Shown: piece after piece, positions 4,471 to 50,510 of the stretch | How the letters are laid out: each line of letters starts with the position of its first letter | Numbering within the stretch: position 1 is the first letter of the stretch | Source of the DNA: Symbiobacterium thermophilum IAM 14863 | GTDB lineage: Bacteria > Bacillota > Sulfobacillia > Symbiobacteriales > Symbiobacteriaceae | Assembly (NCBI RefSeq): GCF_000009905.1 | Contig: NC_006177.1 | Location: forward strand, 930,001 to 994,000 | Reading direction: 5' to 3' | DNA length: 64,000 bases | Position numbers and translations under genes: made by a program | The notes under the pieces: generated by a model | Database searches by the model: none | Told to the model about the DNA's origin: nothing | The model's input: the letters and a program-made list of their open reading frames with translations, nothing else

Positions 4471-7400
4471 TCAGACGGACTTCCCCGCTCCGCCGGCCAC
4501 CGCCGTCTGAAGGAGCGACTCCGTGACCGGCGACGGGGAAACGCCGAGGTGTGCCGCCAGAGCCTCCGCACAGGCCCGGTACTGCTGGCGCGCCCGGTCG
4601 GGCTGGCCCGTGTTCAGGTAGATGCGCATCAGCGCCTGGTGGGTGGGTTCATGGTACTCCTCCAGGGCGAGCCGGCGCTGGAAGGCATGAATCGCCTTGT
4701 CGGGCCGGCCGGCCTCCAGCCAGTAGTAATGGCCGAGCCAGTCCAGCGCTTCGGCCCAGCGCTGCCGCCAACGGTCCCGCAGGTCGCCCAGGGCATACGG
4801 GTCATCGGAGAGCAGGTCGCCCCGGTAGAGCGTGCCCACCTCTTCCAGCAGGCGGGCGGCCTCCTCCGTACGGCCCGCCGCACGCGCCGCCTCCGCCTGC
4901 TGCAGGGTGCGCCTGAACTGGTCCAGGTCCACCCACACCTCGGGACGGCGCTGAAACCAGATCAGTCCGCCCTCCGCCTGAATGTAGCTGGACCGGGTCC
5001 TGCCGCCGAGGTGGGGCTCCAGAAGCCGGCGCAGGTGGTGGAGCGCAACCCGCAGGGATGTGTGGGCCGCGCGGGGGGTCAGGTCGGGCCAGAGCCGTTC
5101 AATGATCTGCTCCCGCGGCAGCGGGCCGTCCTGCGCGAGCAGGAGGGCGAGGAGCTGGCCGGTCTTGCGCCGTTTCAGCGCCCGCAGGTCGACGGGCGCG
5201 TCTCCCAGGCGGACGGCGAGCGGGCCGAGCAGCCGGATGGTGATCAGCGTCGGGCCCGACTCGAGCGTCGCCATCTGCTGTCGTTGCTCCGCCGGAAGCA
5301 GCGCGGCCAGCGCAGTGCGGGCCGCCTCGTCGGACAGGGCCCGCCAGGCGGTGGGAAGGGCACGCAGCTCGCTGCCGGCCAACCGGATCCCTCGCAGCCG
5401 GACGGAAGCGGGCAGCTCGCCGGCCATGCGCATGAGCAGGTTCACGCAGTACGCGGGCTGCACGTTGTATGCGAGGCCGTAGACCACCACGGCGAGGGCC
5501 AGCTGCCACTCGTGCAGGACAAAGAAATCCGTGCCGCGGCGCTGGCACTCGGCCAGGGCCCGCTGCAGCGCCTGCACGGCCTCCCGCCGTGACTCGGTGC
5601 GGGCGGTGCGGAAGCGGGCCACGGCCAGGCCGAGGGAGAGCAGCGTGCGCTCCAGCGCCGTGGCCCTTTCTTGCAGCGTTTCCAGCGTTTTCGCCGCAAT
5701 CTGTGCGGCTGCACGGGCGTCTCCCGTAAAGAATAGATGAAGCATGACGGCCTCGACCCGCTCGGGGACGTGTGCACCTTCCGGACCGGGGCCGTCGGGC
5801 GCGGCTGCCGGCGCCTCGCCGCTCAGCCGGTGCAGCGCGGCCAGCGCGGCGTTGAGCCATGCGCGCAGATGGGGAAGGCCCAGCTCCTCCACGGCGGCGT
5901 GGGCGAGCGGGACCAGGGCCGACGCCGCGGTGAACTCGCCGAGGCGCGTGTGGGCGATCAGGAGGCAGAGCAGGGCGTACGCCCGGCGTCCCACCTTTCG
6001 TGAGCCCGTGGCCAGCGGGCGGCTCAGGCGGCAGGCGTCCTGGAACCGGCCGCTTTCGAGACAGGCCCAGGCCAGGTTGAGGCCCGTCTCGTGCTCCGGG
6101 ATCCCGGCGGCGCGCAGCAGCCGGCTGGACCGCTCCAGCAGCGCAAGCCCGCTGCGGTAGTCTCCCCGCCGGACGCGGACCATCCCGAGCACATCCAGAA
6201 CCTCCGCCTCGCCGATGAGGTCGCCCGACTCCACGTAGAGGACAAGCGCGGTGCGCAGCCCGGCCTCCAGCTCTTCGGGCCCCGCCCCGGTCATGTACGC
6301 GAGCACCGCCTGTTTCAGCGCCAACAGGGCCGCGTCGTCCCGGAACTCCGGCTGCAGGGCGCTGGCCGCCTCGGCCAGGTGCTCCTGGCTGCGCGCAAAG
6401 TCCCGGCGCAGGAAGAGGCAGTCGCTCAGCAGGACGTGGCTGTAGAAAACACCGCGCCGGTCTCCGGCCTGTTCGCAGGACCGGAGCGCCAGACGGGCAA
6501 TGCCCATCGCCCGTTCCGCCTGGCCCGCGTTCAGCAGATACCGCGCCTCGCACAGGGCCACCCAGGGATACTGGGCCTTCTGTGCAGGCGACAGATGTTC
6601 TGCCATCTGGCTCAGCCGGTCCGGTTCAGGCTCCGCCAGCCAGGCGGGCGCTATGCACATGCGGCTCAGCCGGTTGAGGACGTCCGGCCCCCGGGTCCGC
6701 AGGTAGCCGAGGAGGAAGCGTTGAAGTAAGGAAGGGTAGCGATACACCCCCGGACCCACCGGGACGAGAAGCCGGTGGACCCGGCAGAGCCGGTCGACCA
6801 TCTGCTCGCTGTCCCGCCTGCCCAGAAGGGCCTCGCAGGCCGCGGGGGTCACGAAGTTGAGGATGGCGCTCTCCTCCATGAACGACCGGACCGCGGGGTC
6901 GAGTCCTTCCATCACCTCGTCGGCGAGGTAGGCGGTCAGATCCTCAGGCAGCGGCGCGGCCAGGTCGTCAACGGCGGGGATGGCCGCAAGCCCCCCGGCT
7001 TGCCGGGCGGCCTCGGTGAGCAGCACCAAGGCCGCGGGCCAGCCCTCGGTGAGCTGTTCCACCCGGTCGAGCACAGCGGCGGAGGGCGGTTCGCCCGTGG
7101 CCGCGGTCAGCCATGCGGCCATCTCTTCCCGCCGGAACCGGAGCTCCTGCTCGGTGATCTCCCCTGCCCCCTCGCTCAGCTTCAGCCGTACGGTAGGGAA
7201 GGGCAGCGCCGCGCGTGCGGCGATGTAGATGTGCGTCCGCTCGCCTGCCGACTCCGCCAGCCGCCCGATGAGGTCGGCGACGGGGGAGTCCCCGGGAACC
7301 GGACGCAGGTCGTCGAACACCAGCACGTGGTCGCCGGCGACGGCGCTCAGGTCGGCGAGCAGGAGCGGCAGAGGATCTTCCGGCAGACCGCCGCCGTACA

Positions 7401-17140: not shown

Positions 17141-17249
17141 CGGCTTGCCGCAGCGAGATGGAGGGCCATCCCCGGCCGGTTCCCGCAGCGGCGCACAGCG
17201 CGGTTCGCACGAGGGACGCCCGTCCGGAGGCGCATATCGGCGCCCGGTG

Positions 17250-17830
17250 GGACGCCTGCGGAGGCACGTCATGCAGTGCACCTGCGGAACACCGTGGGGA
17301 CGTGTGATGCGTTGCCCCGGCGGGACGCGTGTGGAGGCTGTGACAGCGCCCGGTGGGACGTCATGTGGAGGCTGTGACAGCGCCCGGCGGGACGTCATGT
17401 GGAGGCACGTGATGCAGTGCCCCTGGGAAACGCCGTGGGGACGTGTGATGCGTTGCCCCGGCGGGGCGCGTCTGGAGGCTGTGACGGCGCCCGGCGGGGC
17501 GCGTCTGGAGGCTGTGACGGCGACCGGCGGGACGTCATGTGGAGGCACGTGATGCAGTGCCCCTGGGAAACGCCGTGGGGACGTGTGATGCGTTGCCCCG
17601 GCGGGGCGCGTCTGGAGGCTGTGACGACGCCCGGCAGGACGTCATGTGGAGGCACGTGATGCAGTGCCCCTGGGAAACGCCGTGGGGACGTGTGATGCGT
17701 TGCCCCGGCGGGGCGCGTCTGGAGGCTGTGACGACGCCCGGCAGGACGTCATGTGGAGGCACGTGATGCAGTGCCCCTGGGAAACGCCGTGGGGACGTGT
17801 GATGCGTTGCCCCGGCGGGGCGCCGGAGAC
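17250..17830. repeat. Non-coding tandem-repeat array, 107-bp unit
   Basis: The element GACGTCATGT starts at 17391, 17531, 17638 and 17745, giving spacings of 140, 107 and 107 bases; the 140-base unit carries an extra 33-base partial duplication. A diverged unit precedes them from about 17260. Within a unit, GTGATGC-NN-TGCCCC occurs twice, about 43 bases apart, so the unit is itself an old duplication. 107 is not a multiple of three and no frame resembles a protein, so the array is non-coding. It fills most of the 850-base gap between the thioesterase and Mrp genes. A later copy ends in unique sequence at about 17830. Confidence 0.85.
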
Positions 17831-19108: not shown

Positions 19109-19490
19109 CAGCCAGGACGTCTGGTCTCCGCAGGCCGCCCGGTTGTCGGCTCGGCCAAGGGGCGCGGGACGCGTACCCCTTGGGCGCTCTGCTGTCCATG
19201 GGCAGAACGCTGCTTCTTCGGCGGCGTTCTGCCCTTCATGTTTCTCGGAAGGGGCCGAGACGGCCTGGCGCCGTCCGCACACTGCCGGGAGCTGATCACC
19301 AATACGCCGCCGCGAGTCGACCCGGGGGACCAGTGAGGCTCAGGCAGAGTCCACGCAGGTGTAGGCCGCTGGGTAACGGCTGCTCTGCCTCGGAAGGGCC
19401 GTCGTGGTCGCCCGAAGCGCATGGTCTGGCAGGAGGCTCGTTAGCGGGCTCCGAAGAGAATGGCATGCTGGTAGCTCAGGGGGGAGAGCC
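19109..19490 (+). other. Intergenic region with two hairpins, no gene
   Basis: The first 125 bases hold two perfect stems: CCAAGGGG with CCCCTTGG (19155-19183), and GGGCAGAACGC with GCGTTCTGCCC (19200-19234). The second is followed by TTCATGTTT and is a likely terminator for mrp. The remaining 250 bases contain no convincing frame or known RNA. Confidence 0.5.
19200..19234 (+). terminator. Terminator after mrp
   Basis: An 11-bp perfect stem with a 13-base loop is followed by a T-containing stretch, 92 bases after the mrp stop. Confidence 0.7.
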
Positions 19491-20171
19491 ATGCGCTGTG
19501 AGATCCGGTATCAGCCCAGCTACTCGCTGGCGGTGGTGTATCTGGGACCGGGAGAGGAGGTTCAGGCCGAGCCGGGGGCCATGGTGGCGATGAGCAGCAC
19601 CGTGGAACTGGAAACCGAGGTGAAGGGCGGTTTCCTGGGTGCCCTCGGCAGGTCGGTGCTGGGCGGCGAGTCGTTCTTCACGTCCCGATACAGGGCCAGG
19701 GGCGGCCCGGGCGAGCTGGCCCTGGCTCCCACGCTGCCGGGGGACATCGGTTACGTCGAGCTCAGAGGCGAGACGTTCTACCTGAAGTCCGGCGCATACC
19801 TGGCCGCAGATCCGGAGCTCGCGGTTGACTCGCGCTGGGGCGGCGCCCGCGGCTTCTTCGGCTCCGGTGGACTCTTCCTGCTGCGGGTGCAGGGCACCGG
19901 CGGGCTGTTGTTTACCGCCTACGGCGCCCTGCACGAGAAGGAACTGGCCCCCGGTGAGCGGTATCGGGTGGACACGGGACATGTGGTCGGCTTCAGCGAA
20001 GGCCTGAACTTCGCAGTCCGGAAGGCCGCGAGGGGTTGGTTCTCCACCCTGGCTAGCGGCGAAGGGCTGGTGTGCGAGTTTACCGGCCCGGGGCGGGTGT
20101 ACCTGCAGACCCGCTCCGAGGAGGCGCTGGTGAACTGGATGGTCGCACAGCTTCCCAGCAAGGGGGATTAA
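19491..20171 (+). CDS. AIM24/TIGR00266-family protein
   Basis: This 226-residue protein shows the family pattern: an early VYLGPGEEVQAEPGAMVAMS stretch, repeated beta-rich segments with Gly-rich turns (GGARGFFGSGGLF, GTGGLLF), and a late GEGLVCEFTGPGRVYLQTR motif. No signal peptide or membrane helix is evident. The family forms a beta-sandwich; its biochemical role in bacteria is unknown. ATG at 19491 follows GGGGGGAG with good spacing. A strong hairpin ends the gene, and beyond it lies the 2.1-kb repeat array. Confidence 0.82.
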   Translation: MRCEIRYQPSYSLAVVYLGPGEEVQAEPGAMVAMSSTVELETEVKGGFLGALGRSVLGGESFFTSRYRARGGPGELALAPTLPGDIGYVELRGETFYLKSGAYLAADPELAVDSRWGGARGFFGSGGLFLLRVQGTGGLLFTAYGALHEKELAPGERYRVDTGHVVGFSEGLNFAVRKAARGWFSTLASGEGLVCEFTGPGRVYLQTRSEEALVNWMVAQLPSKGD

Positions 20172-20186
20172 GACGGCGATAGAGAC

Positions 20187-20214
20187 GACCCCGGCGCGGT
20201 GAGGCGCCGGGGTC
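20187..20214 (+). terminator. Terminator after the AIM24-like gene
   Basis: An 11-bp perfect stem (GACCCCGGCGC with GCGCCGGGGTC) begins 15 bases after the stop codon. Nearly the same hairpin closes the opposite side of the repeat array at 22535-22560. Confidence 0.75.
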
Positions 20215-20280: not shown

Positions 20281-22400
20281 GCCCAAACACCCGGATGTTC
20301 CGTGAACTCTGCTGTGGTTGTCTCGAAAGAGGCGCTTTTTCACATTGCCCTCGGCATGGAAGTCGAAAGCCCTCGGTCGCCGGCGTGCATGATCGCATCG
20401 ACTGAGGCGGCTTCCGGGTCACTGCCTGAGTGACTCCCCGGAACGCCACGGCGAGTTGATCCAGCGCGCCGTGCCACGTCAACCCGGACTGCAGGTCGTT
20501 CTTCCGGACGCGCCGAGGCGACCTCGAAAACCGGCGCTTTTACACTTTGCCCTCGGCGTGGAAGTCGAAAGCCACCGGTCACCTACGTGTATAACCGCAT
20601 CGACGGCCGCGGTCTCCCGACCATCAGTCAGCCCCATCGCACTGAACGCCTCGGCTTACGGGTCCATCGCACTGTTATGTTGACTCGGGACTCCTGAGCG
20701 CTTGGGCGGTCTGCTCGACCTCGCAAGCGGCGCTTTTCCACTTTGCCCTCGGCGTGTAAGTCGAAAGCCTTCGGTTGCCAGTGTTAATGATCGCATCGAC
20801 TGCCCCGACCTCCCAACTATCAACCTGCCCCATCGCACTGAACCCCGCGGGCTGCGGGTCCCTCGCACTGTTATGTTGACTCGGGACTCCTGAGCGCTGC
20901 TCCGGGGCGCTTTGCTCGACCTCGCAAGCGGCGCTTTTCCACTTTGCCCTCGGCGTGAAAGTCGAAAGCCTTCGGTTGCCAGCGTTTGATCGCATCGACT
21001 GCCCCGACCTCCCAACTATCAACCTGCCCCATCGCACTGAACGCCTCGGCTTACGGGTCCATCGCACTGTTATGTTGACTCGGGACTCCTGAGCGCTGCT
21101 CCGGGGCGCTTTGCTCGGCCTCGCAAGCGGCGCTTTTTCACTTTGCCCTCGGCGTGAAAGTCGAAAGCCTTCGGTTGCCAGCGTTTGATCGCATCGACTG
21201 CCCCGACCTCCCAACTATCAACCTGCCCCATCGCACTGAACGCCTCGGCTTACGGGTCCCTCGCACTGTTAAGTTGACTCGGGACTCCTGAGCGCTGCTC
21301 CGGGGCGGTCTGCTCGACCTCGCAAGCGGCGCTTTTCCACTTTGCCCTCGGCGTGGAAGTCGAAAGCCACCGGTCACCTACGTGTATAACCGCATCGACG
21401 GCCGCGGTCTCCCGACCATCAGTCAGCCCCATCGCACTGAACGCCTCGGCTTACGGGTCCCTCGCACTGTTATGTTGACTCGGGACTCCTGAGCGCTGCT
21501 CCGGGGCGCTTTGCTCGGCCTCGCAAGCGGCGCTTTTTCACTTTGCCCTCGGCGTGAAAGTCGAAAGCCTTCGGTTGCCAGCGTTTGATCGCATCGACTG
21601 CCCCGACCTCCCAACTATCAACCTGCCCCATCGCACTGAACGCCTCGGCTTACGGGTCCCTCGCACTGTTAAGTTGACTCGGGACTCCTGAGCGCTGCTC
21701 CGGGGCGCTTTGCTCGACCTCGCAAGCGGCGCTTTTCCACTTTGCCCTCGGCGTGAAAGTCGAAAGCCTTCGGTTGCCAGCGTTAATGATCGCATCGACT
21801 GCCCCGACCTCCCAACTATCAACCTGCCCCATCGCACTGAACGCCTCGGCTTACGGGTCCATCGCACTGTTATGTTGACTCGGGACTCCTGAGCGCTGCT
21901 CCGGGGCGCTTTGCTCGGCCTCGCAAGCGGCGCTTTTTCACCTTGCCCTCGGCGTGAAAGTCGAAAGCCATCGGTGGCCAGCGTTCATGATTGCATCGCC
22001 TGCCGCAGCTTCCCCATCGTCAACCTGCCCCATCGCACTGAACGCCGCGGCTTACGGCTCAATCCCGGTGTTACGTTAACTAAGGACGCTTATGCGCTGC
22101 TCCGAACTGGTTGCCGCGAGCTTGCAAGCGGCCCTTTTTCACTTCACTGCCGGTCTGTAAGTCAAAAGCCCTCGGTCGCCATCCTGCATGCTCGCACCGA
22201 CGGCGCATGCTTGCCGGCTACAATCTTGCGCCAAGGCACGGAACGCCGCGGCCTGCACGTCCATCGCGGTGTTACGTTAACTCAGGACTCGTATGCGCTG
22301 CTCCGGAGCTGCTGCCGCGAGCTTGTAAGCGACCCTTTTTCACTTCGCTGCCGGCGTGAAAGTCGAAAGCCCTCGGTCGCCAGCGTTTCACCTTCGCCCC
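20281..22400. repeat. Large non-coding tandem array, about 200-bp unit, about 11 copies
   Basis: The landmark TGACTCGGGACTCC recurs at about 20681, 20877, 21076, 21275, 21476, 21675 and 21876, spacings of 196-201 bases. Each unit also has CTTTTTCAC...TTTGCCCTCGGCGTGAAAG, in which TTTCAC can pair with GTGAAA; some copies have both arms changed (TTCCAC with GTGGAA, near 21333). Outer units (20281-20680 and 22080-22400) are clearly diverged while inner ones are almost identical. Unit lengths vary by non-multiples of three and frames break between copies, so no protein is encoded. The array fills the whole gap between two convergent genes, each closed by a terminator. Confidence 0.88.
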
Positions 22401-22534: not shown

Positions 22535-22560
22535 ACCCCGGCGCCTTCAGGCGCCGGGGT
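22535..22560 (-). terminator. Terminator of the kinase operon
   Basis: An 11-bp perfect stem (ACCCCGGCGCC with GGCGCCGGGGT) has a 4-base loop and is followed on the minus strand by ATTCTGTT. The stop codon of the small gene lies inside the hairpin. Confidence 0.75.
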
Positions 22561-22897
22561 CAGCCTTGCGCAGCGCTTCGCGGCCCGGCATGCGCCAGAC
22601 CATCAGGAACGCCTCCACCTGGTCCCAGAAGGCGTCGGTTCCCATCTGCGCCTCCCGGGTGTCGTACGTGTTGGGCCTGCCGATGCCGCCGCCCCCAATG
22701 TCGATGATCTGCCCGTCCCTGAGCGCGAGCGTCAGGTACTGCACGTGGCGCGGCGTCACGTTGAGGCCCGTCCGGTCCGAAAGCCACTGGGCGATGGTCT
22801 CGTGGGTGGCCACCAGCTCCCGGCGGCCGGCCGCCTTCCGCTCTTCGATCAGGTCGATGAACGCATGCAGAAGCAGCGCCTCCAGGTCATCGGCCAT
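22547..22897 (-). CDS. Small protein of unknown function, last gene of the kinase operon
   Basis: This 116-residue protein is not firmly recognised. Residues 5-65 look like a compact helical, possibly winged-helix, module (THETIAQWLSDRTGLNVTPR, then VQYLTLALRDG), followed by a Gly-rich turn and an acidic/aromatic C-terminal helix. No membrane segment is seen. The ATG at 22897 has GGGAGGG eight bases upstream. It starts 19 bases after the histidine kinase stop and ends in the operon terminator, so it is probably cotranscribed and may act in the same pathway (inference from position only). Confidence 0.7.
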   Translation of the reverse strand: MADDLEALLLHAFIDLIEERKAAGRRELVATHETIAQWLSDRTGLNVTPRHVQYLTLALRDGQIIDIGGGGIGRPNTYDTREAQMGTDAFWDQVEAFLMVWRMPGREALRKADPGA

Positions 22898-22916
22898 CGG
22901 TCGCGCCCTCCCCGTC

Positions 22917-25430
22917 TCACGATTCGTCCTTCAAAGCCGGGAAGCTCACGATGAAGCGCGACCCCCGGCCCGGTTGGCTCTCCAGCTGCAGGTCCCCGCC
23001 GTGCTCCTCCACCATCGTCTTCACGATGGGCAGGCCCAGGCCGGTGCCGCCCACCTCGCGGACGTACGGATGTTCCGCGCGGTAGAACTTCTCGAAGATC
23101 CGCTTCTGATCGGCGGGGGAGATGCCGATGCCCGTATCGGCCACCTCCAGCTCCACCTGGTCGCCCACGGCGGAGACCGACACGGTCACGCCGCCTTCTT
23201 TGGTGTACTTGACCGCGTTGGAAACCAGGTTGGCGATGATCTGGGTCAGGCGGTCGGGGTCGGCGTTGATCAGCGGCACCTCCTCCGGCACGTTGACCGT
23301 GAACGAAAGCCCCTTCTGCTCGGCCTGCACCCGGAAGGTCTCCGCCACCTGCTTGACCACGCTGGCGAGGGAGGTGGGGGAGAGGTGGATGGGCATGCGC
23401 CCGGACTCGATCCGCTGAATGTCCAGCAGGTCGTTGATCAGGTTGGCGAGCCGGTTGGTGTTCCGGGCGACGATATTCAGGAACTCCCGCTGCTGCTCCT
23501 GAAGCGGTCCGGCCGTCCCCGCCAGCACCAGGCTCAGGTACCCCATGATGGACGTGAGCGGCGTGCGCAGCTCGTGAGAGACCGTGTTGACGAACTCGGA
23601 CTTCAGCCGGTCCAGTTCGGCCAGCTCGGTGACGTCCTGGAACGTGAACAGGCGGCCGACACGGCTCTGGCCCTTGCCCACGGGGGCCGACGACCACTGC
23701 AGCGTGTAGCCGGTGGTGAGCCGCAGCTGCCCCTCGGCCACCGCCTGGGGATCGTGGACGAGGTCGCGCACGGTCTGCGGGAACGGGTCGTCTTCGGGCA
23801 GGACGGCGGCGATCTGCGCCAGCATCTGCTCCAGGGGCTCGTCCGGCACCGTCTTGCCGAAGAACTCCTGGAACATCGAGTTGGACACCAGCAGGTTCCC
23901 GCCGGTGTCGCAGAGCCAGGCGCCTGCCGGCATGGTCGAGACGATGGAGAGGTAGATGTCCAGCTGCGCCGAGGCCCGGTCGCGCTCCTCCTCCAGCTGG
24001 GCGTTGAGGATCTCGATCTGCGCCGCCTGGTCCTGCAGCGCAGCGAAGGCCCGCTTCACTTCCTGGTGGTTCTGGGCCGCGGCGAGCGCCACAGAGGCTT
24101 GTCCCGCCACGGCGTGCCAGAGCGCCTGCGCCTCGGCGTTCAGCTCCGTCGGCTCGGTGAAGGCGATGGCCACCACGCCGATGGCCCGGCCGGTGTGAAC
24201 CAGCGGCACATAGACCTCCTGGACCACCGGCACGTCCCGGAGCCAGACGGAGATGTGGGTCTGCGTGTCAGGGTAGCGGGCCACCACGACCTCACGCTGC
24301 TCGACGCAGCGGGCCATGGGTCCCGAACGGGGGATGAACTGGCCCTTCAGGTCCGGCGAAAGCCAGCGCTCCGCGGCCACCTTCAGCCGGTCGGCGTACT
24401 CGTCGACGAGCAGCAGGGCGCCCGCGACGCCCCCGTACAGGTCCAGGTACTCGTCCAGGATCAGGTTGGCCAGCTGGTCCATCTCGATGGAGCCGACCAT
24501 CTTGCTGGACAGGCTGTGCAGCCGGCTGAGATGCCGCTCCTTGCGCTCCAGTTCCTCGGCATGCCGCCGCACCGACTCCTGCTGGGCCAGCAGTTCCTCG
24601 TTCTGGGCGATGAGCTGCTCCTGCTGTTCCTGCAGTTGCTTCTCCTGTTCGGCCAGCGTGAGGGACATCTTGGCGAATGCGTTGGCCACCACCTGCAGCT
24701 CGCCGTCCAGCGGCGCTTCCAGCACCACCCCGCGCTCGCCCTGGGCGATCCGGTTGGCCGCCTCGGCCAGGGCCTCCGTGGAGCGGGTCACGCTCCGGGC
24801 GAAGACCAGAAAGCCGCCGAGGACCAGTACCGCCGCCAGCGAGATGGTCAGCCATGTGATCCGGACCACCTGGTCGGAGGCGACGCCCGCCTTATCCACG
24901 TCCTGGTCCATGCGCTTGGTCTCTTCCCGGATGAAGTGGTCCCGCTGCTCCTTGATCAGCTCGCCGTACTTGACGCCTTCGGTCATGAGCAGGCTGCCCA
25001 CGTCGGGGGCGCCCTGCCGCATACGTGCGATCTCCGGCTCGGCCACCTGGGTCCGCCAGGCGTCGATCAGTTCCCGCAGCCTGTGCACTTGCTCAGCCTG
25101 ATCGGGGTCGCCCTCGACGCTCTCCTCCAGTTCCGACAGCACCTGGTGCAGCCGGTTGAGGTTGGGCTCGTACGGCGCCAGCATCGACTCGTCACCGGTG
25201 AACAGGTAACCCCGCAGGGCGGCCGTCATCTCGGCGTAGAGCGTGGCCACCTGCTCCGCGCGCCGCACGTTCTCCTGGGTGAGCCTGGCCCGCTCCTGGA
25301 ACGAGTTGAGCTGGGTGAACGTGAAGGTGAGGATGATCCCCAGCCCGACCAGGAGGGAGAGCAGGAAAAGCAGCAGGCCGAAGACGCGCAGTCGCAGGCC
25401 GGTGTCCCAGCGGTAGGGCGATTCGCTCAT
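22917..25430 (-). CDS. Membrane sensor histidine kinase (CHASE3-like, HAMP, GAF, PAS, HisKA, HATPase)
   Basis: This 837-residue sensor begins with a transmembrane helix (residues 15-40), a helical extracellular CHASE3-type domain (40-190) and a second helix (about 193-213). A HAMP segment, a coiled coil rich in Gln/Glu (270-310), a GAF domain (310-470) and a PAS domain (500-600) follow. The kinase core has the phospho-acceptor His in TVSHELRTPLTSIMGY near residue 618, NLVSNAVKYTKEGG (N box), ADTGIGI (G1) and GTGLGLPIVK (G2). It phosphorylates its partner regulator, encoded by the overlapping upstream gene. The signal is unknown. Confidence 0.92.
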   Translation of the reverse strand: MSESPYRWDTGLRLRVFGLLLFLLSLLVGLGIILTFTFTQLNSFQERARLTQENVRRAEQVATLYAEMTAALRGYLFTGDESMLAPYEPNLNRLHQVLSELEESVEGDPDQAEQVHRLRELIDAWRTQVAEPEIARMRQGAPDVGSLLMTEGVKYGELIKEQRDHFIREETKRMDQDVDKAGVASDQVVRITWLTISLAAVLVLGGFLVFARSVTRSTEALAEAANRIAQGERGVVLEAPLDGELQVVANAFAKMSLTLAEQEKQLQEQQEQLIAQNEELLAQQESVRRHAEELERKERHLSRLHSLSSKMVGSIEMDQLANLILDEYLDLYGGVAGALLLVDEYADRLKVAAERWLSPDLKGQFIPRSGPMARCVEQREVVVARYPDTQTHISVWLRDVPVVQEVYVPLVHTGRAIGVVAIAFTEPTELNAEAQALWHAVAGQASVALAAAQNHQEVKRAFAALQDQAAQIEILNAQLEEERDRASAQLDIYLSIVSTMPAGAWLCDTGGNLLVSNSMFQEFFGKTVPDEPLEQMLAQIAAVLPEDDPFPQTVRDLVHDPQAVAEGQLRLTTGYTLQWSSAPVGKGQSRVGRLFTFQDVTELAELDRLKSEFVNTVSHELRTPLTSIMGYLSLVLAGTAGPLQEQQREFLNIVARNTNRLANLINDLLDIQRIESGRMPIHLSPTSLASVVKQVAETFRVQAEQKGLSFTVNVPEEVPLINADPDRLTQIIANLVSNAVKYTKEGGVTVSVSAVGDQVELEVADTGIGISPADQKRIFEKFYRAEHPYVREVGGTGLGLPIVKTMVEEHGGDLQLESQPGRGSRFIVSFPALKDES

Positions 25431-26371: not shown

Positions 26372-27001
26372 TTGGTGTCCAAATCCCTCGACGAACTCCT
26401 GGTCGAACGGGCAAAACGGGGGGACGTTGAGGCGTTCGAGCAGCTGATCAGCCAGCACGAGAAGACGGTGTACAACATCGCCTACCGGCTGACCGGCAAC
26501 CACGAAGACGCCTCCGATCTCGCCCAGGAAGCCTTCATCCGCGCATACAGTTCGTTGGCCGACTTCCGCGGCGACTCCTCCTTTGCGACCTGGCTCTACC
26601 GCATCGTGAACAACGTCTGCCTTGACGAACTGCGCAGGCGCAAGCGGCAGAAGGTTACCTACCTGGATCAGGCCGTCGAGATGGAGGACGGCGAGGTGTC
26701 CCGGCAGATCGCCGACACGGCGGACGGGCCGGAGCAGGCGCTGGAGCGCGTGGAACTGCAGCGGCTGATACAGGAGAGCATCCTGCAGCTGGACGAGGAG
26801 TACCGGGTCGTGCTGGTCATGCGGGAACTGCAGGGGTACTCATACAATGAAATCGCAGAGGCGCTGGACCTCAACCTGGGGACGGTGAAGTCACGGCTCA
26901 ACCGCGCACGGAGCGCCCTCAAAGAAAAGTTCATGAGCCTGGAACTTTTGACGCCGAGAGTCGTCTACAGGGCTAGGAGGGGAAAAGCCCATGAACTGTG
27001 A
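26372..27001 (+). CDS. ECF RNA polymerase sigma factor (SigW/RpoE type)
   Basis: This 209-residue sigma-70 family factor has region 2 (YNIAYRLTGNHEDASDLAQE, ATWLYRIVNNVCLDELRRR) and region 4 with an HTH (YRVVLVMRELQGYSYNEIAE, LGTVKSRLNRAR). An acidic linker separates them. Such factors direct polymerase to TGAAAC/CGT promoters in envelope or metal stress. TTG at 26372 is seven bases from GGAGG; GTG at 26375 is the alternative. It overlaps the anti-sigma gene by 11 bases. An ECF-type promoter directly upstream indicates positive autoregulation. Confidence 0.93.
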   Translation: MVSKSLDELLVERAKRGDVEAFEQLISQHEKTVYNIAYRLTGNHEDASDLAQEAFIRAYSSLADFRGDSSFATWLYRIVNNVCLDELRRRKRQKVTYLDQAVEMEDGEVSRQIADTADGPEQALERVELQRLIQESILQLDEEYRVVLVMRELQGYSYNEIAEALDLNLGTVKSRLNRARSALKEKFMSLELLTPRVVYRARRGKAHEL

Positions 27002-28193
27002 CGGAGTACGTCCACTCCTGTCCGGCTACATCGATCAGGAGCTGTCCGCCGGCGAGTTGCTGCGGGTCGAGCAGCACCTCCGGCGGTGCCATGCCTGCGC
27101 GGCGGAAGTGGACGCCCTCCGGCAGACGGTTGCATTGGTCGCTTCCCTGGATGAGGTTGAGGTTCCTGCGACGTTCCACGCGCAGTTGCGCCAGCGCCTG
27201 ATGTCAGAAGATCCGCCCATCGCCAGGGTGCACACGGCGGGGCGAGGCCGAAACCGGCTTCATTCCTTCCAGCGGTGGGCGATTCCGGCGGCTGCTGCCG
27301 CAGCCTTCGTCATCGGCGCGGCCGGCCTGAACCGGTTTGTGCCGCCTGCGGCACAGGTTGAGCCGCCTCCCGGGGGGGCCGTCGTGGCCGCACCCGGGTC
27401 GCACGTGGACACGGCAGAGGTGCCGGGCACGACCAATCCGCCCGGGACAGACGCACAAGAACAGCCGCATCATCCGGTGGACGGACCTGACGCAAACCCG
27501 CCGTCTGGCACCGGAGGCCGCGTTGAACATCCTGAAGGCCAGCTGACCGAACAGCTTGATCCGGGCTCAGCGGGCGTGGTGCAGACCACGCCGCCCCCGG
27601 AGACAGGCGATGCGAATCCCGCGGCCAATCCTGCAACCACGCCTGCACCCCTGGGGCCGACACGGCCGACAGGGGGTGTGACGACCGCCTCGACCTCCGG
27701 CGACACCGCCGGCCAGGTGGAGCTGTCGCCGCAGCCGCACTTCTCCGCCACCGCGGAGATGACCGTGGCGAGCCCGGCCGCCGAGGCCGCACAGCTCCGG
27801 GACCGGTTTGACCGGTGGCGGGTGCAGGAGAACGGACGGGTCGGCACCGTGGAACTGCAGATCTTCGTCCCGGCGGGGGAGTTCCGGGAAGCGGTCGCCC
27901 TGGTGAACAGCGAGCTGGCCGGCTACGGCGTCGCCCTGAAGGTACAGGAGAAGGACCTGGCCGGGCAGATCGCCGAGACGGAGGACCGCATCGCGACGCT
28001 CGAGGAAGCCCGCGAGGCCCTGGCGGCCCGGCTGGCGACCGAGACCAGCCAGGACCGGCTGGAGGAGGGCGCAAGGGAGCTGACCAAGATCCAGCAGCAG
28101 CTGGAGACGGAACGGGCCAACCAGCAGAACCTGCGGGAAGCCGTGGAAAACGGCGTGATCGTGCTGACTTTCAAGCCCGAACCCATACGGTAG
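26991..28193 (+). CDS. Membrane anti-sigma factor with zinc-finger and C-terminal DUF4349
   Basis: This 400-residue protein starts with an anti-sigma zinc-binding (ZAS) domain containing His-x3-Cys-x2-Cys (HLRRCHAC, residues 37-44). A transmembrane helix (about 88-107) follows, then a long Pro/Thr/Gly-rich extracytoplasmic linker (110-240) and a C-terminal DUF4349 region with a coiled coil (about 330-390). It should hold the sigma factor at the membrane and release it on an envelope signal. The ATG at 26991 lies inside the sigma coding end with GGAGGGG upstream, so the two are translationally coupled. A terminator hairpin follows, into which the group II intron has inserted. Confidence 0.88.
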   Translation: MNCDGVRPLLSGYIDQELSAGELLRVEQHLRRCHACAAEVDALRQTVALVASLDEVEVPATFHAQLRQRLMSEDPPIARVHTAGRGRNRLHSFQRWAIPAAAAAAFVIGAAGLNRFVPPAAQVEPPPGGAVVAAPGSHVDTAEVPGTTNPPGTDAQEQPHHPVDGPDANPPSGTGGRVEHPEGQLTEQLDPGSAGVVQTTPPPETGDANPAANPATTPAPLGPTRPTGGVTTASTSGDTAGQVELSPQPHFSATAEMTVASPAAEAAQLRDRFDRWRVQENGRVGTVELQIFVPAGEFREAVALVNSELAGYGVALKVQEKDLAGQIAETEDRIATLEEAREALAARLATETSQDRLEEGARELTKIQQQLETERANQQNLREAVENGVIVLTFKPEPIR

Positions 28194-28237: not shown

Positions 28238-30117
28238 GTGTGCCCGGCATGGGCGCTGACTTGGCGGTGAAAGTCCGCTACGGGCGAGGCAGCACCAGCC
28301 CGTTAGCCAAAGGCAAGGGTGTCCGTCGTGAGGCGGAATCTGAAGGAAGCCCGAGGCAAAGCCACGACCCGAGGAACACGAACCCCATAGGAGGCTGTGC
28401 CGCTCGGGTGAGCTGGCCGAACACAGCAAAACCCGAAGCTGCCAAAGGGCGGTGCGGTAGATGGGGCGGGTGCGGGGTGAAGGTCAGCGTTCTTACCCGG
28501 GGAGATCTGCCGGGAACGCCAGCAACGCTGGTAACCTGCGTCGGGAGACGCAGCTGAACCGGCAGAAGTCAGCAAAGGCCATAGTACCGGCAGGGGGACG
28601 CCCCAACCGGGAAGGGCCGAACGTCAGGAAAGGGGTGAACCCGTTGCGTTCGAGCAGCCCGCGACAAACGCAGAAGACCCCGAACGGGACCTGCTCGCCG
28701 GAGGTAGCGGTGAAGCCGCAAGGGACGGCGAGAGGGCGGAGTGGGCAGCCGGCACAAGACGGAACGTTACCCCGCGGGGAGCACAGCAACCTGATGGAGC
28801 AGGTGGTGGCCAGGGAGAACATGCTGGCCGCCCTGAAACGGGTGGAGCGGAACGGAGGCGCTCCCGGCGTGGACGGTGTCCCCACCGAACGGCTGCGGGA
28901 CCAGATTCGCGTGGAGTGGAGCCGCATCCGTGAGGGACTGCTCCAGGGGACCTACAGACCGCAGCCAGTCCGCCGGGTCGAAATCCCGAAACCGGGCGGC
29001 GGCAAGCGGATGCTGGGGATTCCCACCGTGATGGACCGCCTGATCCAACAGGCACTCCTGCAAGTACTGACGCCGATCTTTGACCCGACATTCTCCGAAT
29101 CCAGCTACGGCTTTCGGCCGGGGCGGCGGGGTCATGATGCGGTCAGGAAGGCACGTCAGTACGTGGAGGAAGGGTACGACTGGGTCGTGGACATGGACCT
29201 GGAGAAGTTCTTCGACCGGGTCAACCACGACGTGCTGATGGCCCGCGTGGCGCGGCGGGTAACGGATAAGCGTGTGCTGCGGCTGATCCGGCGGTACTTA
29301 CAGGCTGGGGTCATGCTGAACGGGGTAGTCGTGGCGACGGAGGAAGGGACGCCGCAGGGCGGTCCGCTGAGCCCGCTGCTGGCGAACATCCTGCTGGATG
29401 ACCTCGACAAGGAGCTGGAGCGCCGCGGGCACCACTTCGTCCGGTACGCCGATGACTGCAACATCTACGTCCGCAGCAAGCGGGCGGGAGAACGGGTCTA
29501 CAGGAGCGTGCGCCACTTCCTGCAGGAGCGGTTACGGCTGAAGGTCAACGAGGAGAAGAGCGCAGTGGACCGGCCGTGGAAGCGGCAGTTCCTCGGGTTT
29601 AGTTTCTACAAGCACCGGGGAGTGCGCATCCGGCTGGCCCCGAAGAGCCTGAAGCGCGTGAAGGACAAGCTCCGCACGCTGACGGACCGCAACCGCAGCC
29701 AGAGCATGGAGGACCGAATCCGGCGCCTGAATGCTTACTTGCGGGGCTGGGTTGGGTACTATGCGCTCTCCGATGCCAGGTCAGCCTTTGAAAGACTCGA
29801 AGGATGGCTGAAGCGTCGGCTGCGAGCATGCGTATGGAAGCAGTGGAAGCGTGTACGCACGCGCTTTCGGGAGTTGCGCGCCCTCGGTTTGCCCGAATGG
29901 GTAGTCCACCAACTCGCCAACAGCCGCAAAGGCCCGTGGCGGATGGCAGGTGGCCCACTAAACAGCGCCCTGGGCGACGCCTACTGGCGTGCCCAGGGGC
30001 TGATAAGCCTGACCGAATGCTATGAAGCGACTCGTCAATCCTGGCGAACCGCCGGATGCGGACCCGCATGTCCGGTGGTGTGAGAGGACGGGGGCTAGCC
30101 GCCCCCTCCTACTCGAT
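28238..30117 (+). mobile_element. Class C group II intron, copy 1
   Basis: The 1880-base element begins GTGTGCCCGGC directly after a terminator hairpin. It ends with a domain V/VI-like segment (CCGGATGCGGACCCGCATGTCCGG, 30051-30074, then the GGGGGCTAGCCGCCCCC hairpin and CTACTCGAT). It encodes one maturase-type reverse transcriptase. A second copy of identical length lies at 60176-62055 and differs at only scattered bases, which fixes both ends to within a base or two. Insertion behind a terminator and lack of an endonuclease domain are class C features. Copy 1 separates the sigma operon from polA. Confidence 0.9.
28644..30083 (+). CDS. ltrA: Group II intron-encoded reverse transcriptase/maturase, copy 1
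   Basis: This 479-residue intron protein has RT blocks running from IPKPGGGKRMLGIPTVMDR through SSYGFRPGRRGHDAV and GTPQGGPLSPLLANILLDD to the catalytic FVRYADDCNIYV. The maturase domain X is RGWVGYYALSDARSAFERLE. No HNH endonuclease follows, as expected for class C. It splices the intron RNA and primes its retromobility. TTG at 28644 is eight bases from AGGAAAGG; GTG at 28635 is an alternative, and the frame is open further upstream inside intron RNA domains. All catalytic motifs appear intact. Confidence 0.9.
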   Translation: MRSSSPRQTQKTPNGTCSPEVAVKPQGTARGRSGQPAQDGTLPRGEHSNLMEQVVARENMLAALKRVERNGGAPGVDGVPTERLRDQIRVEWSRIREGLLQGTYRPQPVRRVEIPKPGGGKRMLGIPTVMDRLIQQALLQVLTPIFDPTFSESSYGFRPGRRGHDAVRKARQYVEEGYDWVVDMDLEKFFDRVNHDVLMARVARRVTDKRVLRLIRRYLQAGVMLNGVVVATEEGTPQGGPLSPLLANILLDDLDKELERRGHHFVRYADDCNIYVRSKRAGERVYRSVRHFLQERLRLKVNEEKSAVDRPWKRQFLGFSFYKHRGVRIRLAPKSLKRVKDKLRTLTDRNRSQSMEDRIRRLNAYLRGWVGYYALSDARSAFERLEGWLKRRLRACVWKQWKRVRTRFRELRALGLPEWVVHQLANSRKGPWRMAGGPLNSALGDAYWRAQGLISLTECYEATRQSWRTAGCGPACPVV

Positions 30118-41446: not shown

Positions 41447-41564
41447 CGATGGAAAGATTCGCCATACCTGGATGGGATTCCTTCCTTAGATCGAGCGAAT
41501 GTTCGCTCAGATCTTCCCTCTGTTCGCTTGCATCCCTGTACGATCGGTTGCCGCCAGCCGAGCG

Positions 41565-42584
41565 TGTGCTCGTCGACCGGCGTGCGCCGGTGCTGGGCGA
41601 CCGGCATACGCCGGGTTTTCACTTGGTCAGCAGTTGCCAAGTGAGACTCCAGCGGATCCGAGTGCGAACCGGGAGCGACTTGGGCCTACGTATGCCCCGG
41701 GGGACCTGTGTCTGCTCGCGACTGCGCCTGCAAGCCACCCGGTACGAGTTGCCTCCGCCAGCCGCGCGTGTGCTCGTCGACCGGCGTGCGCCGGTGCTGG
41801 GCGACCGGAATCCGCCGGTTTTTCACTTGGTCAACATGCGCCAGGTGAAGATCCAGCGGATACGAGTACGGACCGGGGGTGACTTGAGCCTACGTTCGCC
41901 GCGGGGGACCTGTGGTCGTTCTCGATTGCGTGCGTCTGCGTCCCGGTACGAGTTGCATTCGCCAGCCGCGCGTGTGCTCGTCGACCGGCATCCGCCGGTG
42001 CCGGGCGATCGGCATACGCCGGGTTTTCACTTGGTCAGCGTACGCCAGGTGAAGATCCAGCGGATACGAGTACGGACCGGGGGTGACTTGAGCCTACGTT
42101 CGCCGCGGGGGACCTGTGGTCGTCCTCGATTGCGTGCGTCTGCGTCCCGGTACGAGTTGCACTCGCCAGCCGCGCGTGTGCTCGTCGACCGGCATCCGCC
42201 GGTGCCGGGCGATCGGCATACGCCGGGTTTTCACTTGGTCAGCGTACGCCAGGTGAAGATCCAGCGGATACGAGTACGGACCGGGGGTGACTTGAGCCTA
42301 CGTTCGCCGCGGCGGACCTGTGGTCGTCCTCGATTGCGTGCGTCTGCGTCCCGGTACGAGTTGCACTCGCCAGCCGCGCGTGTGCTCGTCGACCGGCATC
42401 CGCCGGTGCCGGGCGATCGGCATACGCCGGGTTTTCACTTGGTCAGCGTACGCCAGGTGAAACTCCAGCGGATCCGAATGCGAACCGGGGACGACTTGGA
42501 CCGATTTCGTCGGTGCGGACCTGTCGTTGCCCCGGTGTGTGCGCCAGCGAGGCTTCAGGTGCGGGTCTCCGAAGGTCCCCGCCG
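41565..42584. repeat. Tandem array of five 204-bp units next to the nuclease gene
   Basis: TGTGCTCGTCGACCGG recurs near 41565, 41769, 41973, 42177 and 42381, exactly 204 bases apart. Units 3-5 are nearly identical while unit 1 and the right half of unit 5 are diverged. Each unit has TTCACTTGG-N-CCAGGTGAA (CCAAGTGAG in unit 1, 41617-41644), which can form a hairpin. Because 204 is a multiple of three, a rightward frame (41449-42606, 385 codons, 68-residue repeats) stays open. However, its third-position GC is low for this genome and copy differences are not concentrated at third positions, so coding is doubtful. Confidence 0.85.
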
Positions 42585-42606
42585 GGCGGCCGTTGCTGCA
42601 GAGTAA

Positions 42607-46576: not shown

Positions 46577-47191
46577 ATGGTTCTGAGCGAGATGGTGCCG
46601 ATGGGCGAGATGATGCCATGGGGCGGGATGGCGCCGATGGGCGGACCCGGCCCGATGAGCAAGCCGATGATGCCTTACGGCCGGCCCGGCTGGCCGGTGA
46701 TGCCCCAGATGACGCCAGGGATGATGCCGGGGATGATGCCGGGGATGATGCCGGGGATGATGCCGGGGATGATGCCGGGGATGATGCCGGGGATAACGCC
46801 GGGGATGGTGCCGGGGATGACGCCGGGGACGACGCCGGGGATGATGCCGCCGATGACGTCGCCGCAGATGATGATGCCGCCGGGCGCGCCGCCGGAACTA
46901 GTTTACGGCGGCCAGGTCATGATCCCGCAGGAGCAAAGCTACGTGGAGAACATCCTGCGGATGAACCGGGGCAAGACGGCGACGGTCTACGCCACCTACG
47001 ACAACAACCCGGAATGGGCCGCCCGGGTCTTCCGGGGACAGGTGGAGAACGCGGCGCGGGATCACGTCGTGCTGAGCGATCCCCAGACCGGCATGCGCTA
47101 CGTGATCCTCATGGTGAACATCGACTACCTCACCTTCGACGAACCCCTGCGCTACCCGGAGGAGATCTACCGACCGCCGGGGACGTTCTGA
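46577..47191 (+). CDS. gerQ: Spore coat protein GerQ with Met-Pro-Gly repeats
   Basis: This 204-residue protein has a C-terminal GerQ domain of about 90 residues (SYVENILRMNRGKTATVY, FRGQVENAARDHVVLSDP, LMVNIDYLTFDEPLRYPEE). GerQ is needed for CwlJ to assemble in the spore coat. The N-terminal 110 residues are Met/Pro/Gly-rich, with six PGMM tetrapeptides in a row and further PGIT, PGMV, PGMT, PGTT variants encoded by 12-base DNA repeats (46720-46850). In Bacillus this region is Gln/Lys-rich and cross-linked by transglutaminase; here Gln is scarce. ATG at 46577 abuts AGGTGG, so ATG at 46592 may also be used. Confidence 0.9.
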   Translation: MVLSEMVPMGEMMPWGGMAPMGGPGPMSKPMMPYGRPGWPVMPQMTPGMMPGMMPGMMPGMMPGMMPGMMPGITPGMVPGMTPGTTPGMMPPMTSPQMMMPPGAPPELVYGGQVMIPQEQSYVENILRMNRGKTATVYATYDNNPEWAARVFRGQVENAARDHVVLSDPQTGMRYVILMVNIDYLTFDEPLRYPEEIYRPPGTF

Positions 47192-50173: not shown

Positions 50174-50283
50174 TTCCTGCCTTCAACACGGCTCCCGGAT
50201 CCCAGTTTACCGCCGGGGCGCAGCCCCTTGCAAGCGGGCCGACGGCGGAGCCCGCGCGGCAGCCTTCCCGTGCCGCTTCCCCG

Positions 50284-50510
50284 GCCGGACCGGGAGCGGT
50301 CGGATCGGGAGCGGCCGGATCGGGAGCAGCTGGATCGGGGGCATCCGGATCGGGGCGTCCGGATCGGGGCGGCCGGATTGGGGCGGCCGGATCGGGAGCT
50401 GTCGGATCGGGAGCTGTCGGATCGGGAGCTGTCGGATCGGGAGCTATCGGATCGGGAGCTGTCGGATCGGGAGCGGCCGGATCGGGAGCGGCCGGATCGG
50501 GTGCGATCGG
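50284..50510. repeat. Tract of about fifteen 15-bp repeats
   Basis: Variants of GGATCGGGAGCTGTC repeat every 15 bases; the central copies are identical and the left copies vary. The tract lies between the divergent MFS and deacetylase genes, occupying most of the 446-base gap. It is probably a slippage-prone minisatellite that could shift the spacing of promoters; no protein use is likely. Confidence 0.85.

What the first reader, a model, noticed from the sequence alone, without database searches (positions are those of the whole stretch)
20281..22400. 2.1-kb satellite-like array of about 200-bp non-coding units between two terminators
About 11 units of 196-201 bases lie head to tail. Inner units are nearly identical and outer ones diverged, as expected from unequal crossing-over in satellite DNA. 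Each unit keeps a short TTTCAC/GTGAAA hairpin around TTGCCCTCGGC, with one copy showing paired changes (TTCCAC/GTGGAA); others have mismatches, so the covariation is only suggestive. The array is isolated from flanking transcription by nearly identical hairpins. Frames break between units, so it is not protein-coding. It could encode a repeated small RNA, be a protein-binding array or be selfish DNA.
Basis: seen in the sequence. Interest (0 to 1): 0.7.

Follow-up and report, generated by a model that had tools for sequence, protein, structure and literature searches.

The report
Genus-wide arrays of spaced DNA palindromes
The repeat array is one of dozens of tandem arrays in Symbiobacterium genomes; they share a roughly 60-base imperfect palindrome repeated at fixed spacings (about 115 or 190-223 bases), which looks like a new family of REP/BIME-like spacer elements rather than random satellite DNA.

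Summary
The array is real: 11 units spaced 196-202 bp at 20314-22388, bracketed by two near-identical terminators. The conserved pairing is TTTT-x-ACTT / AAGT-x-GAAA, at the heart of a ~60-bp imperfect palindrome with a fixed 14-15-nt loop.

The palindrome is not confined to this locus. Covariance models built here found 124 copies at 42 loci in three genomes of the genus, and only two weak single matches in the other relatives scanned. Type A sits in arrays of 188-223 bp period. Type B sits in arrays of 112-118 bp period; window 41598-42484 is an exception at 204 bp.

Several sites are orthologous. The window array exists in a sister species at the same gene junction but is absent in a third. 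Another site has six palindromes in one species and one in the other. At orthologous sites the palindrome is conserved (66-80% identity), while linker or flank is at or near chance. Type A shows modest compensatory change.

Best reading: genus-specific REP/BIME-like intergenic palindromes, expanded and contracted by recombination, acting, if at all, at DNA level. Not REP members: longer motif, mostly direct arrays, no Y1 transposase. Function is untested.

The parts
20314..22388 (+). Type A palindrome array: 11 palindromes and 10 linkers, period 196-202 bp
20314..20388 (+). palindrome 1 (diverged)
   Evidence: model R1, 72.2 bits
20515..20590 (+). palindrome 2
   Evidence: model R1, 73.3 bits
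20712..20786 (+). palindrome 3
   Evidence: model R1, 84.4 bits
20913..20987 (+). palindrome 4
   Evidence: model R1, 85.6 bits
21112..21186 (+). palindrome 5
   Evidence: model R1, 85.8 bits
21311..21385 (+). palindrome 6
   Evidence: model R1, 79.8 bits
21512..21586 (+). palindrome 7
   Evidence: model R1, 85.8 bits
21711..21785 (+). palindrome 8
   Evidence: model R1, 85.1 bits
21912..21986 (+). palindrome 9
   Evidence: model R1, 80.6 bits
22113..22187 (+). palindrome 10 (diverged)
   Evidence: model R1, 73.3 bits
22314..22388 (+). palindrome 11 (diverged)
   Evidence: model R1, 77.5 bits
20187..20214 (+). terminator-like hairpin after the AIM24-family gene
   Evidence: perfect 10-bp stem; near-identical to the right-hand one
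22535..22560 (-). terminator-like hairpin after the convergent gene 22547-22897
19404..20171 (+). flanking AIM24-family gene (PF01987); synteny anchor in G001 and G002
22547..25430 (-). flanking convergent genes: small protein without a Pfam match (22547-22897) and a histidine kinase (22917-25430); synteny anchor
41598..42484 (+). second array of the same family in the window: five type B palindromes, period 204 bp; palindromes also lie at the orthologous site in G001 and G002

Best explanation
The array is one member of a genus-specific family of interspersed, intergenic palindromic elements. Shown: each unit carries one ~60-bp imperfect palindrome (20-22-bp arms, fixed 12- or 14-15-nt loop, core TTTT-x-ACTT/AAGT-x-GAAA). 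Units sit mostly in direct orientation at ~115 bp (type B) or ~190-223 bp (type A). The elements persist at orthologous sites while copy number and linkers turn over. Inferred: arrays grow and shrink by unequal recombination or slippage between units, and the palindrome is kept because it is used at DNA level, as an architectural or protein-binding site in the manner of E. coli BIMEs. Sequence-specific RNA function is less likely for this array, because it lies between terminators and shows no promoter-like site.
For: An unbiased pattern taken from the array hits the own genome 8 times, always inside arrays, with 0 control hits. The models found loci that were not used to build them, e.g. L098, L099 and L101 at E of 1e-9 to 1e-15. 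There are 124 copies at 42 loci; type B spacings are 112-118 bp at 14 loci and type A spacings 188-223 bp. The window array and L020, and L054 and L070, are orthologous arrays; L099 and L108 share a site with 6 versus 1 copies; G001 has an empty site at the window locus. Palindrome identity is 0.66 versus linker 0.53 (shuffled 0.52) for window/L020, and 0.80 versus upstream 0.50 (shuffled 0.54) for L099/L108. Type A shows 20 both-side changes versus 11.9 shuffled (2/500), with slid registers at 3-8. No promoter-like site was found in the array.
Against: Pairing is not tight. Type B pairing is no better than shuffles, and some positions are mispaired in most copies. In the window array the whole palindrome folds no better than shuffles (z +0.20 and -0.89), although its nine-pair core is 96% paired. 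No binding protein has been identified. Period constancy may partly be inherited, since several type B linkers share a block. Only three genomes carry the family, and one is an 88% complete assembly in 230 contigs.
Confidence: 0.55

Rival explanations
1. Neutral or selfish satellite: the palindromes are passive repeats spread and homogenised by recombination or slippage, with no host use; hairpin-prone sequence simply promotes the instability.
For: Within-array homogenisation, copy-number turnover at L099/L108, empty site in G001, decayed stem stability in the window array.
Against: Palindromes are better conserved than linkers or flanks at orthologous sites. Loop length and period are constant across loci. 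Type A shows compensatory change.
Confidence: 0.25
2. Tandem structured-RNA genes: each unit, or the whole array, is transcribed into hairpin RNA.
For: Strong folds at other loci (z -4.5 to -6.4 for L070, L017, L062); type A covariation.
Against: No promoter-like site in the window array and terminators on both sides. No Rfam match in the array at E up to 1. Window units fold like shuffles. Elements lie in varied orientations relative to neighbouring ORFs.
Confidence: 0.1
3. Recently mobile MITE- or REP-like elements moved by a transposase.
For: Many dispersed copies; empty sites in G001 at the window locus and in G000 and G001 at the L064 locus.
Against: No Y1 transposase in any of the three genomes. 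At least four G000 loci have palindromes at the orthologous site in another species. Arrays begin and end with whole palindromes. No target-site duplication could be shown.
Confidence: 0.1

Closest known systems
REP / BIME elements (E. coli, Pseudomonas)
   Same: Intergenic imperfect palindromes, interspersed, single or in regular clusters; proposed DNA-level roles such as gyrase or IHF binding (PMC2817692, read; PMC3733652).
   Different: REPs are 20-40 bp with 5-13-bp stems, carry GTAG or CGTC tags, and GTAG families are linked to Y1 transposases; BIMEs alternate orientation. Here ~60 bp, 20-22-bp arms, mostly direct arrays, no such tag noticed, no Y1 gene.
CRISPR arrays
   Same: A conserved palindromic repeat with regularly sized intervening DNA.
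   Different: The repeat is ~60 bp, and within an array the linkers are copies of one another rather than unique spacers. Neighbouring genes in the window that were scanned are not cas genes.
Bacterial minisatellites / VNTRs
   Same: Tandem array with unequal copy number between species.
   Different: A common palindrome is shared by arrays at dozens of unrelated loci, at two preferred periods.

Membership tests
REP/BIME | Extragenic palindromic repeat in many copies per genome | tested here: met
   124 palindromes at 42 loci in three genomes, apparently intergenic; ORF calls at some loci are ambiguous.
REP/BIME | 20-40 bp with a 5-13-bp stem | tested here: not met
   Arms of 20-22 bp, loops of 12 or 14-15 nt.
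REP/BIME | GTAG or CGTC tag next to the stem | tested here: inconclusive
   No conserved tag was noticed in the aligned flanks; not counted formally.
REP/BIME | Y1 (RAYT) transposase in the genome, for GTAG families | tested here: not met
   PF01797 absent from G000, G001 and G002, while positive in 5 of 14 control genomes.
REP/BIME | Alternating orientation in clusters | tested here: not met
   Larger arrays are in direct orientation; strand calls on near-symmetric palindromes are weak in a few loci.
CRISPR | Unique spacers between repeats | tested here: not met
   Linkers within an array are near copies.
Structured RNA family in Rfam | Match to a described family | tested here: not met
   No match in the window array up to E = 1.
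Structured RNA family in Rfam | Transcription of the units | not testable with these tools
   No RNA data are available; no promoter-like site was found.

The most novel reading that the evidence does not exclude
The palindromes are sites of a genus-specific chromosome-organising system. Arrays would present binding sites on the same face of the helix: type A periods cluster near 190, 201, 211 and 222 bp, that is 18-21 helical turns, and type B near 115 bp (11 turns).
Probability: 0.2. Interest if true: 0.75.

Novelty: new variant of a known kind. Interest (0 to 1): 0.55.

Why it matters
It turns an apparent one-off satellite into a genus-wide family with orthologous, expanded and empty sites. 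That makes it testable whether regularly spaced palindromes in bacterial intergenic DNA are kept for DNA architecture or are passive, in a lineage without the transposase thought to spread REPs.

Tried and rejected
RNAalifold on the mixed type A alignment predicts no pairs; the helix was set by hand from the pair-frequency diagonal, so its pairing percentage leans towards itself, and the shuffles and slid registers are the controls used. Insertion into a bidirectional terminator with duplication: twin terminators flank the window array, L020, L019 and L057, but a same-stem pair at window 52262/53110 has no array, most other loci lack twins, and G001's empty site has two different terminators. 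Target-site duplication at L064: the intergenic DNA is too diverged to tell. parS-like reading of TTTCAC/GTGAAA: dropped, since GTGAAA in that position is not kept in sister arrays. Spread beyond the genus: the pattern scan of genome contigs gave four other records with single hits, treated as chance without further study; G014 and G007 each gave one weak model hit, not pursued. Viral contigs, phages and plasmids: nothing. Helical phasing: R = 0.63 at 10.5 bp over 13 loci, p about 0.005, about 0.035 when lengths are collapsed by hand, and loci are not independent; pooling both types weakens it at 10.5 bp (R 0.45); kept as a suggestion only. The genome paper that I recalled for this organism is not held.

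Full report
Where it is. The window is 930001-994000 of a single-contig genome of 3,566,135 bases. The array lies between an AIM24-family gene and a convergent pair, a small protein without a Pfam match and a histidine kinase.

The observation. Tandem Repeats Finder reports 20519-22387 with period 201, and eleven anchors are spaced 196-202 bp. Inner units are nearly identical and outer ones diverged. Near-identical terminator-like hairpins lie at 20187-20214 and 22535-22560. DNA searches found no full-length copy elsewhere in the own genome, nor in phages or plasmids.

The core motif. A short pattern from the array, TTTTCACTTN{6,16}GTGAAA, has eight hits in the genome and none for the reversed control; all lie in tandem arrays at three loci (one search shows the tandem structure). 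A related genome of the genus, G002, gave weak matches that proved to be arrays with the same core, one of them at the same gene junction as the window array. Aligning the cores fixed the register: TTTTT-C-ACTT pairs with AAGT-C-GAAAA. The new register pairs 96.3% within the array but also shows no covariation there, because those columns hardly vary.

The family. Model R1, built from the window and G002 cores, found 11 window units in the own genome plus weak hits in other arrays, 52 hits in G002 and 7 in G001, and only one weak hit outside the genus among the listed relatives. Model R2, built from the second subtype, found arrays in the own genome that were not in its training set, at 1059601, 1555652 and 2011667, and many in G002. 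Merging both gives 124 palindromes at 42 loci. Type B neighbours are 112-118 bp apart at 14 loci, with exceptions at 150, 153 and 204 bp; type A neighbours are 188-223 bp apart. Loops are 14 nt in 43 of 53 type A sites and 12 nt in 62 of 72 type B sites.

Orthologous sites. The window array aligns to L020 in G002 on both flanks. In G001 the same junction has a short spacer with two terminators and no palindrome. L054 and L070 are orthologous arrays. L099 has six palindromes where L108 has one. The site of the second window array also has palindromes in G001 and G002. So the loci are old, while copy number changes.

Constraint. Between window and L020 units, palindromes are 66% identical (shuffled 50%) and linkers 53% (shuffled 52%). 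For L099/L108 the palindrome is 80% identical and the upstream intergenic DNA 50%, against 54% shuffled. Linkers are not always at chance: L054/L070 linkers are 64% identical against 55% shuffled, and several type B linkers share a block, so constant period may be partly inheritance. Across one copy per locus, type A has 20 both-side changes against 11.9 in shuffles (2 of 500) and 3-8 in slid registers. Type B is not convincing: pairing 79.8% against 80.1% shuffled, covariation score reached by 29 of 500 shuffles. Nearly symmetric palindromes can also acquire matching changes through conversion between arms, which I did not test.

Structure and transcription. Folds are strong for L062, L017, the second window array, L070 and L099 (z -6.4, -6.1, -5.2, -4.5 and -3.4), moderate for L019 (-2.3), and no better than shuffles for two window units and L020. 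There is no promoter-like site in the array and no Rfam match there. Together with the flanking terminators this argues, without proving, against an RNA role for the window array.

Mobility. No Y1 transposase was found in G000, G001 or G002. I read this as making REP-style RAYT mobilisation unlikely; other transposases were not searched.

Phasing. Type A periods cluster near 190, 201, 211 and 222 bp. A Rayleigh test at 10.5 bp gives p about 0.005 for 13 loci, and about 0.035 on hand-collapsed lengths. Loci are related by descent, the pitch was chosen as the textbook value, and I treat this as a lead.

Comparison. The elements resemble REPs and BIMEs as described in PMC2817692 and PMC3733652, but differ in motif length, orientation and lack of a Y1 gene. 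I therefore file them as a new variant of a known kind rather than as REPs. Two full-text searches of the held library for Symbiobacterium with intergenic repeat terms showed no paper on them; the library lacks most subscription papers.

Noticed in passing
window 41598-42484: Second array of the same palindrome family, period 204 bp; the period is a multiple of three, so a 385-aa ORF (41449-42606) runs through it, probably by chance.
   Followed up: partly
window 17240-17823: GC-rich tandem array (periods 107, 140 and 34 bp) between two ORFs, with no core of the palindrome family noticed.
   Followed up: no
window 28322-30117: Group II intron (Rfam D1-D4 domains and RF00029) around a 540-aa ORF (28461-30083), presumably its maturase.
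   Followed up: no
window 46693-46864 and 50282-50505: Short-period tandem repeats of 12 and 15 bp.
   Followed up: no
window 27507-27602: ARAGORN tRNA-Leu(GAG) call inside a 400-aa ORF on the other strand (26991-28193), not reported by the Rfam scan of that stretch; probably false.
   Followed up: no
window 20187-20214 and 22535-22560; L019, L020, L057 flanks; window 52262 and 53110: Pairs of near-identical terminator-like hairpins flank several arrays, differing between loci; one such pair in the window has no array between.
   Followed up: partly
type A linkers in L019, L020, L057, L059, L061, L062: Conserved GCGTTAYGTCAAC followed about 22 bp later by TTATGTC, a possible pair of direct-repeat sites; less clear in the window array.
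   Followed up: no
L017 about 4970-5800: Tandem GNAT-like genes with near-identical ends next to the 115-bp array; the GNAT name is my reading, no family search was run.
   Followed up: no
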